From: Sphingobacterium tabacisoli
GTDB lineage: Bacteria; Bacteroidota; Bacteroidia; Sphingobacteriales; Sphingobacteriaceae
Length of the DNA stretch: 64,000 nt
Assembly (NCBI RefSeq): GCF_017908035.1
Contig: NZ_JAEQMU010000007.1
Location: 124,001-188,000 of the forward strand
Direction: 5' to 3'
Numbering within the stretch: position 1 is the stretch's first letter; every line of letters begins with the position of its first letter. Shown one piece after another: positions 28,645 to 30,376 of the stretch. The translations under genes and the position numbers were made by a program. The notes beneath the pieces were generated by a model that saw nothing but the letters and a program-made list of their open reading frames with translations, was not told where the DNA came from and did no database searches.

Positions 28645-29601
28645 TTACGCCAGCTGCTCCACGATCTTCTGCGTAGGACCAGGATTACTCATGGTATAAA
28701 AATGTAAAACCGGTGCTCCAAAATCAATCAACTCTTTACACATATTCACCATCCACTCCTGGCTTACAAGTTGCACATCTGCATTTGTTTTACAAACATC
28801 TACAGCATCACTCAACTCTTCTGGAATATCTAAGTGAAATATTTTAGGCAGTGCAATCAACTGCTTTTTAGAGGTCAGCGGCTTTAATCCTGGAATAATA
28901 GGTACATGAATACCATTGTCCCGACACTTTACCACAAACTCCTTATACTTATCAATATTATAGAACATTTGCGTCACGATAAAATCGGCTCCCATTTCTA
29001 CCTTCTTTTTTAACCACTTAAAGTCTGTGTTAAAATTCGGAGACTCAAAATGCTTCTCTGGATAACCGGCGACCCCTACACAAAAGTCAGTCTGCTCCGA
29101 GCTCTCCATATCTTCATGTAGATAATGTCCAGAATTCATATCCAAGACCTGTTTTAATAAATCTGTCGCATAAGCATGCCCTCCGGGAGTTGGAATAAAA
29201 TCCGCATCCCCTTTACGTGCATCTCCGCGTAGCACCAACACATTATCAATACCCAAAAAGTTAAGATCAATCAGTGCATTCTCCGTCTCTTCCTTTGTAA
29301 AGCCTCCACAAATAAGATGTGGCACAGCATCCACCTTATACTTATTCATTATCGCCGCACAGATCGCAACTGTACCGGGACGCTTGCGATAGGCGACACG
29401 CTCCAACAAGCCACTCGCATGTTCTTTGTAAAGATAATCCTCGCGGTGGTAAGTAACATCAATGAAAGGAGGGTTAAACTCCATCAATTTGTCCATCGTA
29501 TTGAAAATACTCTGGATTCCCTTGCCTTTAGCAGGTGGAAGCAGTTCAAAGGAGAACAGGGTCTTTCCATCAGCCTGTTTAATATGGTCGATAATCTTCA
29601 T
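28645..29601 (-). CDS. metF: methylenetetrahydrofolate reductase
   Basis: This 318-residue cytoplasmic flavoprotein reduces 5,10-methylene-THF to 5-methyl-THF, the methyl donor for methionine synthesis. The start is the ATG at 29601 (MKIIDHIKQADGKTLFSFELLPP), not the upstream GTG at 29631. Family motifs include FSFELLPPAKG, PFIDVTYHRE, the GGFTKEETENALIDLNFLGIDNVLVLRGD segment and ADFIVTQMFYN. Length is close to the usual ~300. A SAM-I riboswitch lies 53-154 bases upstream, so the gene is expected to be off when S-adenosylmethionine is abundant. It stands alone, with rimM upstream in the same orientation but separated by the riboswitch region. Confidence 0.97.
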   Translation of the reverse strand: MKIIDHIKQADGKTLFSFELLPPAKGKGIQSIFNTMDKLMEFNPPFIDVTYHREDYLYKEHASGLLERVAYRKRPGTVAICAAIMNKYKVDAVPHLICGGFTKEETENALIDLNFLGIDNVLVLRGDARKGDADFIPTPGGHAYATDLLKQVLDMNSGHYLHEDMESSEQTDFCVGVAGYPEKHFESPNFNTDFKWLKKKVEMGADFIVTQMFYNIDKYKEFVVKCRDNGIHVPIIPGLKPLTSKKQLIALPKIFHLDIPEELSDAVDVCKTNADVQLVSQEWMVNMCKELIDFGAPVLHFYTMSNPGPTQKIVEQLA

Positions 29602-29653
29602 ACAAATATTTTTAAGGCCAAGAGAAAGCACACAAAGGCATTGTGAGTCTTCA

Positions 29654-29755
29654 GCTTATCTTTCCCACCGATTGGCGGGTAGAATGTAGCACCTTGACAA
29701 GTGTCAGGTTGCTAAGGCTTCAGCGGGTCTAGTCCCTCGGCCTTTCTCTATAAGC
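29654..29755 (-). promoter_or_regulatory. SAM-I (S-box) riboswitch controlling metF
   Basis: Read on the minus strand, the region shows the S-box landmarks in order: GCTTAT at the 5' P1 arm (29755-29750), AGAGAAAGGCCGAGGGAC, then CGCTGAAGCCTTAGCAACC, then AAGGTGCTACATTC, a P4 hairpin (CCCGCCAATCGGTGGG) and the closing GAAAGATAAGC (P1 3' arm at 29659-29654). P1 is six perfect pairs. The aptamer ends 53 bases before the metF ATG. No classic terminator follows. Instead AGAGAAAG in the aptamer (29749-29742) can pair with CTTTCTCT (29628-29621) in the leader, a possible alternative switch helix. Binding of S-adenosylmethionine is expected to reduce metF expression. Confidence 0.93.
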
Positions 29756-29851
29756 ACTACTAATATCGGTTTAAAAAATGAAAAGTAAAAATGAAAACTC
29801 AAAAAGCGAATAAAAAAGTATCATTTTATTTTTCACAACTAATTGAAAATC

Positions 29852-30376
29852 TTACTCTTTATAAAGATCGACTAGGCCTTCAGGCAACTCTACTTCTATA
29901 ATTTCTTCTTCTTGGTCGATACCCAGAATCAAATCATCAGAGAGCGGAAACATCATTTCCTTGCCATCCATATCCACTGTCGCAATAAACTGCTGTGGCA
30001 TCTCCTGCACATCGATAATCTCGCCCAGCTCTCCGTGCTCCTCATCGATAACGAGATAACCAACAAGGTCTGTGTAACGAAAATCATCAGGATCTCTTTC
30101 CGGCATCTTATCATTTGGCAGGTACATCTTCTTACGCACTAATACCTGTGCTTTATCAATATGGTCTACATCTTCAAATGTAGCATAGGCTGTACTATTG
30201 TTATGAAGCTTAATCTGATCCACAAAATAAGGAACCAATTTCTTATTGACCTCCAAAAAGATAATCTCCAATTCCAGATCATCATAATCTTCGAACTCAA
30301 AAAACAACTGCACTTCCCCTTTAAGACCCCGAGTCTTACTTACGTATCCGATATAAAAACTTTCTTCTATTGTCAT
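29852..30376 (-). CDS. rimM: ribosome maturation factor RimM
   Basis: This 174-residue cytoplasmic protein helps process 16S rRNA and assemble the 30S head domain. The start is the ATG at 30376 (MTIEESFYIGYVSKTRGLKGEVQ); the frame extends 19 codons upstream without an ATG of comparable fit. The N-terminal YIGYVSKTRGLKGEVQLFFEF is the RimM barrel motif. The C-terminal PRC-barrel carries TDLVGYLVIDEEHGELGEIID and MMFPLSDDLILGID. It lies 90 bases after rpsP in the conserved rpsP-rimM order, with a terminator-like hairpin between them. No trmD follows in this window. Confidence 0.95.
   Translation of the reverse strand: MTIEESFYIGYVSKTRGLKGEVQLFFEFEDYDDLELEIIFLEVNKKLVPYFVDQIKLHNNSTAYATFEDVDHIDKAQVLVRKKMYLPNDKMPERDPDDFRYTDLVGYLVIDEEHGELGEIIDVQEMPQQFIATVDMDGKEMMFPLSDDLILGIDQEEEIIEVELPEGLVDLYKE

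What the first reader, a model, noticed from the sequence alone, without database searches (positions are those of the whole stretch)
29600..29760. SAM-I riboswitch on metF with an unusual possible switch helix
The aptamer is clear but no classic terminator follows. AGAGAAAG in the aptamer (29749-29742) is perfectly complementary to CTTTCTCT (29628-29621) about 20 bases before the ATG, so an alternative pairing could block aptamer folding and change ribosome access, i.e. control of translation rather than termination.
Basis: partly seen in the sequence, partly recalled or inferred. Interest (0 to 1): 0.5.

Follow-up and report, generated by a model that had tools for sequence, protein, structure and literature searches.

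The report
Sphingobacterial SAM switch with anti-P1 lock
A SAM-sensing RNA in front of the methionine gene metF is followed by a short sequence that can undo the sensor once it is transcribed; the same matching pair of sequences recurs across the bacterial family, so it looks like a real switch, although how it finally turns the gene off is not yet shown.

Summary
A SAM-I aptamer (29756-29653, minus strand, 76.2 bits) precedes metF, and AGAGAAAG (29749-29742) is exactly complementary to CTTTCTCT (29628-29621), 19 nt before the ATG. No terminator-like hairpin was found. In the window alone the match is only moderately unlikely (exact 8-mer in 55 of 5000 shuffles; energy test p=0.26), but relatives settle it. 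Across Sphingobacteriaceae, SAM-I leaders carry, between aptamer and start codon, an element made of a J1/2 complement plus a mimic of the P1 3' strand. It matches the leader's own P1 5' strand and J1/2 even where those differ (17 distinct cores; 0 of 20000 permutations), does not match the P1 3' strand, and is absent from 10 of 10 aptamer-less metF leaders. Folding predicts that P1 is stable until the element is transcribed and is then displaced (window P(P1) 0.94 to 0.00). So this is an anti-P1 lock that forms only when RNA polymerase is near the start codon, too late for classical attenuation. Output at translation initiation is likeliest but inferred: predicted start-site accessibility does not differ beyond shuffled controls. 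New variant of a known kind.

The parts
29653..29756 (-). SAM-I (S-box) riboswitch aptamer
   Evidence: RF00162, 76.2 bits, model 1-108 of 108
29750..29755 (-). P1 5' strand GCUUAU
   Evidence: pairs with 29659-29654 in the aptamer; invariant in 26 of 26 aligned metF leaders
29742..29749 (-).
   Evidence: exact complement of 29628-29621
29654..29659 (-). P1 3' strand AUAAGC, displaced in the locked state
29624..29652 (-). local hairpin after P1 (inner stem CACAA 29645-29641 / UUGUG 29635-29631) whose lower stem overlaps the element
   Evidence: P1-forced fold; corresponding segments fold better than shuffles on average, mean z -0.78 (n=36) and -0.90 (n=23)
29621..29628 (-). CUUUCUCU: 3' arm of helix A, the lock element
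   Evidence: positionally equivalent elements in relatives
29733..29744 (-). AAGGCCGAGGGA: 5' arm of helix B (P2/P2b)
   Evidence: 12 bp with 29625-29614, P=0.926 in the free ensemble
29614..29625 (-). UCUCUUGGCCUU: 3' arm of helix B
   Evidence: read by eye, the full register is present only in the window and its closest relatives L035-L038
28645..29601 (-). metF, methylenetetrahydrofolate reductase (318 aa), the regulated gene
29760..29767 (-). GATATTAG, conserved just upstream of the aptamer; resembles the Bacteroidetes -7 box, so transcription may start near the P1 5' strand
   Evidence: conserved upstream of metF leaders; -7 box TAnnTTTG at -12 to -5 in PMC9723704, passages. Start site not mapped

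Best explanation
It is a SAM-I riboswitch with an anti-P1 lock as its expression platform. The aptamer is transcribed first and P1 forms. If SAM is bound, P1 stays shut and the downstream element is left free or in a small local hairpin. This destroys the SAM site and locks the RNA in the ligand-free state. Since met genes are normally off when SAM is plentiful, the locked state should be ON. Because the lock can form only when polymerase is at about the start codon, the output is most likely translation initiation, in a phylum that does not rely on Shine-Dalgarno pairing. Shown by sequence comparison and folding: the helix, its covariation, and its exclusion of P1. Inferred: ligand, sign, and output step. 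My confidence is about 0.9 for the mutually exclusive helix and about 0.5 for translation as the main output.
For: Aptamer. In all 51 metF leaders examined the free ensemble disfavours P1 (P(P1) at most 0.12; P1-forced ensembles 1.5-9.4 kcal/mol worse, window 2.8). Complementarity to P1 5' strand plus J1/2 beats dinucleotide shuffles: mean z -1.97 (39 Sphingobacterium leaders) and -2.20 (58 other Sphingobacteriaceae leaders), against +0.33 for 25 metY-type leaders as a negative control. It is strand-specific: 5' strand z -1.98 and -2.11, 3' strand +0.67 and -0.22. Own-segment pairing beats swapped segments: 0 of 10000 permutations over 97 leaders and 0 of 20000 over 17 distinct cores. The element is absent in 10 of 10 aptamer-less metF leaders, present at -9 kcal/mol or better in 27 of 30 with the aptamer. 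Growing-RNA folds: window P(P1) 0.94 at 29625, 0.25 at 29620 with helix A 0.67, then helix B 0.92 from 29610. Of leaders with P1 formed before the element, 27 of 28 (Sphingobacterium) and 11 of 11 (other genera) lose it after; control 3 of 11. Element-to-ATG spacing: median 28 nt. Of 9 leaders with an aptamer of another type, 8 have a canonical terminator, and six of the nine also carry a strong complement to their own 5' strand, which in the strong cases printed lies beyond the terminator and before a leader-peptide ATG.
Against: In the window alone the energy test is not significant (p=0.26), and helix A on its own is worse than P1 (-54.9 against -56.3 kcal/mol); helix B carries the preference (-59.45). 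Within Sphingobacterium the 5' segments hardly vary, so the swap test is uninformative there (p=0.75). The permutation tests do not model shared ancestry. In 21 of 57 class C leaders no helix of -8 kcal/mol or better was found. Accessibility of the start region in the SAM-bound state is not different from shuffled leaders (0.517 against 0.535, p=0.38), so no structure that blocks the ribosome has been identified. Complementing the element in silico only partly restored P1 (P=0.16). Folding ignores the SAM-I pseudoknot, ligand and Mg2+.
Confidence: 0.6

Rival explanations
1. Anti-P1 lock with Rho-dependent termination, or transcript decay, as the output: SAM keeps the pyrimidine-rich element single-stranded, exposing it to Rho or an RNase; without SAM the lock hides it.
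For: The sign fits an OFF switch directly. E. coli thiC combines an anti-P1 lock, a pause at the start codon and Rho termination (PMC5234074, passages). The elements are pyrimidine-rich in the listed leaders.
Against: The exposed stretch is short, and spacing to the start codon is fairly constant, which these routes do not require. In the P1-forced folds part of the element sits in a local hairpin. No Rho or RNase site was tested.
Confidence: 0.25
2. A weak intrinsic terminator: the local hairpin followed by UUUCUCU ends transcription when SAM is bound.
For: In a few leaders (L037, L057, L078, L129, L177) the hairpin and element meet a terminator pattern with the element as or next to the U-tract; shuffled baseline 0.6-1.4%.
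Against: The window itself has none; only 6 of 40 Sphingobacterium leaders score, three of them inside the coding region. While the U-tract is in the RNA-DNA hybrid it cannot pair with the aptamer, so the conserved complementarity could not act as an antiterminator (reasoning).
Confidence: 0.1
3. The complementarity is a by-product: A/G-rich J1/2 meets U/C-rich leaders by chance or through shared ancestry, and the aptamer acts by another route.
For: Single-leader tests are often weak (17 of 39 and 28 of 58 at p<=0.05); the window alone has p=0.26.
Against: Covariation over 17 cores, strand specificity, loss together with the aptamer, and the negative-control class.
Confidence: 0.05

Closest known systems
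SAM-I (S-box) riboswitch, Rfam RF00162
   Same: Aptamer core, P1-P4, gene context (met genes)
   Different: The recalled textbook platform is a terminator/antiterminator using the P1 3' strand; here the downstream element mimics that strand and takes the 5' strand and J1/2
E. coli thiC TPP riboswitch anti-P1 lock (PMC5234074, passages)
   Same: Ligand-free RNA forms an anti-P1 stem around the start codon that blocks ligand binding and is the ON state
   Different: Different ligand and aptamer; thiC hides an RBS and uses Rho and pausing, none of which is shown here. Which P1 strand thiC uses was not checked
Translation-attenuating SAM-I riboswitches with the RBS in the P1 3' side (PMC2258182, section 9)
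   Same: Possible control of initiation without a terminator
   Different: No Shine-Dalgarno-like sequence before metF, and the P1 3' strand lies about 53 nt upstream of the ATG

Membership tests
SAM-I riboswitch (RF00162) | Covariance-model score above the gathering score over the whole model | tested here: met
   76.2 bits against 44.4, positions 1-108
SAM-I riboswitch (RF00162) | Selective SAM binding | not testable with these tools
   needs in-line probing
SAM-I riboswitch (RF00162) | Methionine/SAM gene downstream | tested here: met
   metF
Terminator-type S-box attenuator | Intrinsic terminator after the aptamer | tested here: not met
   0 terminator-like sites in 29300-29900
Terminator-type S-box attenuator | Downstream complement of the P1 3' strand | tested here: not met
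   3'-strand mean z +0.67 over 40 Sphingobacterium leaders, the window among them
RBS-sequestering translational riboswitch | Shine-Dalgarno sequence hidden in the bound state | tested here: not met
   29621-29602 reads UUGGCCUUAAAAAUAUUUGU, with no GGAG- or AGGA-like run (by eye)
Anti-P1 lock (thiC-like mode) | Downstream sequence pairs with P1 and its neighbourhood and excludes the aptamer | tested here: met
   (prediction and covariation)
Anti-P1 lock (thiC-like mode) | Ligand-free state is ON; bound state hides the start region | tested here: inconclusive
   52 of 68 leaders less accessible when bound, but not beyond shuffles
Anti-P1 lock (thiC-like mode) | Pause and Rho involvement at the start codon | not tested
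   no assay here

The most novel reading that the evidence does not exclude
Sphingobacteriaceae have a dedicated, Shine-Dalgarno-free riboswitch platform: a duplicated P1 3' strand fused to a J1/2 toehold invades the unliganded aptamer by toehold strand displacement just as polymerase reaches the start codon. The OFF signal is the release of this element rather than the hiding of a ribosome site.
Probability: 0.3. Interest if true: 0.7.

Novelty: new variant of a known kind. Interest (0 to 1): 0.5.

Why it matters
Riboswitches that control translation are usually explained by hiding a Shine-Dalgarno sequence, which Bacteroidetes ribosomes hardly use (PMC6847099, abstract and passages; PMC9976891, abstract start). 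A covarying switch helix placed just before start codons across a Bacteroidetes family gives a concrete, mutable system for asking how a riboswitch controls expression there. It also shows how a platform can be found by testing each leader against its own aptamer instead of searching for terminators or ribosome sites.

Tried and rejected
Classical terminator: rejected for the window. Ribosome-site occlusion as a demonstrated mechanism: a small difference between states vanished against shuffled leaders, so it is kept as inference only. Helix B as the conserved form: read by eye it is complete only in the window and L035-L038, so helix A plus the P1 extension is taken as ancestral. Consensus folding of the 26-leader alignment gave only the aptamer, not the lock, probably because the element's spacing and bulges vary. 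Phylum-wide generality: not supported (21 leaders, mean z -0.63, p=0.048, 7 of 21 below -1.5). Those 21 come from the top-scoring 30 loci and are a biased sample. A first automatic parse misplaced the aptamer in some leaders; it was replaced by the stricter parse and is used only for examples, not for counts. Rows dropped: one search kept 131 of 194 parsed leaders after removing near-identical ones (ratio above 0.93); one search added phylum loci to reach 152. The class boundary changed slightly between (39 and 58; 40 and 57). One search used 68 of 93 leaders with an assigned start (helix at -8 kcal/mol or better, start not far downstream); one search used 62. One search left out 22 leaders without such a helix (1 class A, 21 class C) and would have left out any leader with fewer than five P1 pairs. 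Literature: searches returned no paper whose title or abstract start described such a platform in Bacteroidetes (one search returned almost only unrelated papers). The library is open-licence PMC only, so this is weak evidence of absence.

Full report
WHAT IS THERE. The window comes from a Sphingobacterium genome (G000, 5.47 Mb); its MetF is 100% identical to that of a Sphingobacterium MAG and 99% to that of S. yanglingense. On the minus strand the order is rpsP, rimM, SAM-I aptamer, metF. The aptamer scores 76.2 bits over the full RF00162 model and is one of four SAM-I aptamers in the genome. The leader between P1 and the ATG is about 53 nt and has no terminator-like site. A second register, helix B (29744-29733 with 29625-29614, 12 bp), overlaps it and wins in the unconstrained fold (P=0.926; ensembles: free -59.94, helix B -59.45, P1 -56.31, helix A -54.90 kcal/mol). 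The whole 186-nt stretch folds better than all 200 shuffles (z -3.43).

CHANCE. An exact 8-mer complement between the first 24 nt of the aptamer and the leader occurs in 55 of 5000 shuffled leaders. An energy-based test on the window alone is not significant (p=0.26). One sequence cannot settle the matter.

RELATIVES. Of 80 metF loci, 50 gave a recognisable aptamer close upstream, and one more (L085) was found further upstream with a wider parse. In these leaders the stretch before the ATG contains UUUUCUCUAAGCC and variants, complementary to GCUUA-(UA)-GAGAAA, that is the P1 5' strand plus J1/2. L078 is complementary over 14 positions with two G-U pairs, and the S. multivorum group has UUUCGAUGUAAGC (read). 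In the 26-leader alignment the first 15 nt from the P1 5' strand (GCUUAUAGAGAAAGG) are invariant. The metE leader of the same genome (L002) has its own version, CUCUCUCUACAGC.

COVARIATION. In other Sphingobacteriaceae the P1/J1-2 segment differs (ACUUAUCCAGAA, AAUUAUCAAGAA, AGUUAUCAAGAA, GCUUAUUGAGAA and others) and the downstream element differs to match, for example L165 (12 pairs), L126, L123, L183 and L218. Each leader pairs better with its own segment than with swapped ones: 0 of 10000 permutations over 97 leaders, and 0 of 20000 when each of 17 distinct cores counts once. Within Sphingobacterium the swap test has no power (p=0.75), and shared ancestry is not modelled. Complementarity is to the 5' strand and not the 3' strand. 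Leaders of the metY type, same aptamer family but a different platform, show none (25 leaders, mean z +0.33). Ten metF leaders without an aptamer lack the element (best -6.3 kcal/mol), while 27 of 30 with the aptamer reach -9 or better in the last 80 nt; the other three reach only -5.8 to -7.6 in that stretch.

ORDER OF EVENTS. When the window leader is folded at increasing length, P1 holds (0.83-0.95) up to 29625. At 29620 helix A is at 0.67 and P1 at 0.25; from 29610 helix B is at 0.92 and P1 at 0.00. Over the family, 27 of 28 Sphingobacterium leaders and 11 of 11 from other genera that had P1 before the element lose it after (below 0.1), against 3 of 11 in the control class. These are equilibrium folds without ligand or pseudoknot.

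HOW IT MOST LIKELY WORKS. Because the element must leave the polymerase before it can pair, and the ATG lies 11-27 nt further on in the typical metF leaders (median 28 nt over the leaders with a helix of -8 kcal/mol or better), the choice is made with polymerase at about the start codon. That argues against an ordinary leader terminator for the window and leaves translation initiation, Rho-dependent termination or decay. Translation is favoured for three reasons: the element keeps near start codons; initiation in this phylum is tuned by structure around -20 to +20 (PMC6847099, passages); and in nine leaders of another aptamer type, eight of which have a canonical terminator, the complement is found again in six, in the strong cases beyond the terminator and before a leader-peptide ATG. 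Against it: predicted accessibility at the start codon changes little (0.607 with the lock, 0.519 with P1, lower in 52 of 68 leaders), and the SAM-bound value does not differ from shuffled leaders. The output step is therefore open.

COMPARISON. The aptamer is an ordinary SAM-I member. The platform is not the terminator type and not a Shine-Dalgarno hider. It works like the anti-P1 lock of E. coli thiC, where the ligand-free RNA locks near the start codon, with Rho and pausing taking part (PMC5234074, passages). A published riboswitch survey assigns translation control by default where no terminator is found (PMC2258182, section 9). A 2026 covariation study of whole riboswitches includes SAM but does not contain the word stem 'Bacteroid' in its main text (PMC13273304, passages). 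I found no description of this platform in the searches listed under Tried and rejected.

VERDICT. The claim about translation is plausible and untested.

Noticed in passing
L001 (G000:C1:2326709-2326823), L005, L008, L014, L184, L186, L214, L221 and others: SAM-I aptamers of the metY (FETLQVHAGQ) type are followed within 27 nt by the start of a short ORF in 24 of 25 leaders, typically ending in Met/Arg or Cys/Met runs (e.g. SMRMRMHMHFPTC, SCCMCMCC). It looks like a SAM riboswitch placed directly on a Met/Cys leader peptide.
   Followed up: partly
L118, L120, L128, L131, L136, L137: Aptamers of a further type combine a canonical terminator, a downstream complement of the aptamer 5' strand in several, and a leader peptide ending in FRM(R/C) near a second hairpin with a T-run: possibly three controls in one leader.
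   Followed up: partly
L048, L050, L051, L052, L054, L055, L056, L098: These eight Sphingobacterium metF genes had no aptamer within 330 nt upstream, so the riboswitch seems to have been lost, or was never there, in part of the genus.
   Followed up: partly
L061 and L087: About 90-100 extra bases with a short ORF lie between the lock element and the metF start; the stretch before the start resembles the aptamer-less leaders.
   Followed up: no
window about 30447-30411 (-): A hairpin with a T-run (AAAGGTCGGTTCATGATATGGACCGACTTTTTG) lies between rpsP and rimM, so rimM and metF may not be read from the rpsP promoter.
   Followed up: no
L116, L117, L129, L165 and others: In other genera the same lock precedes genes starting M(K/R)IYLDNAATTP, which look like cysteine desulfurase (my reading, no family search).
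   Followed up: no
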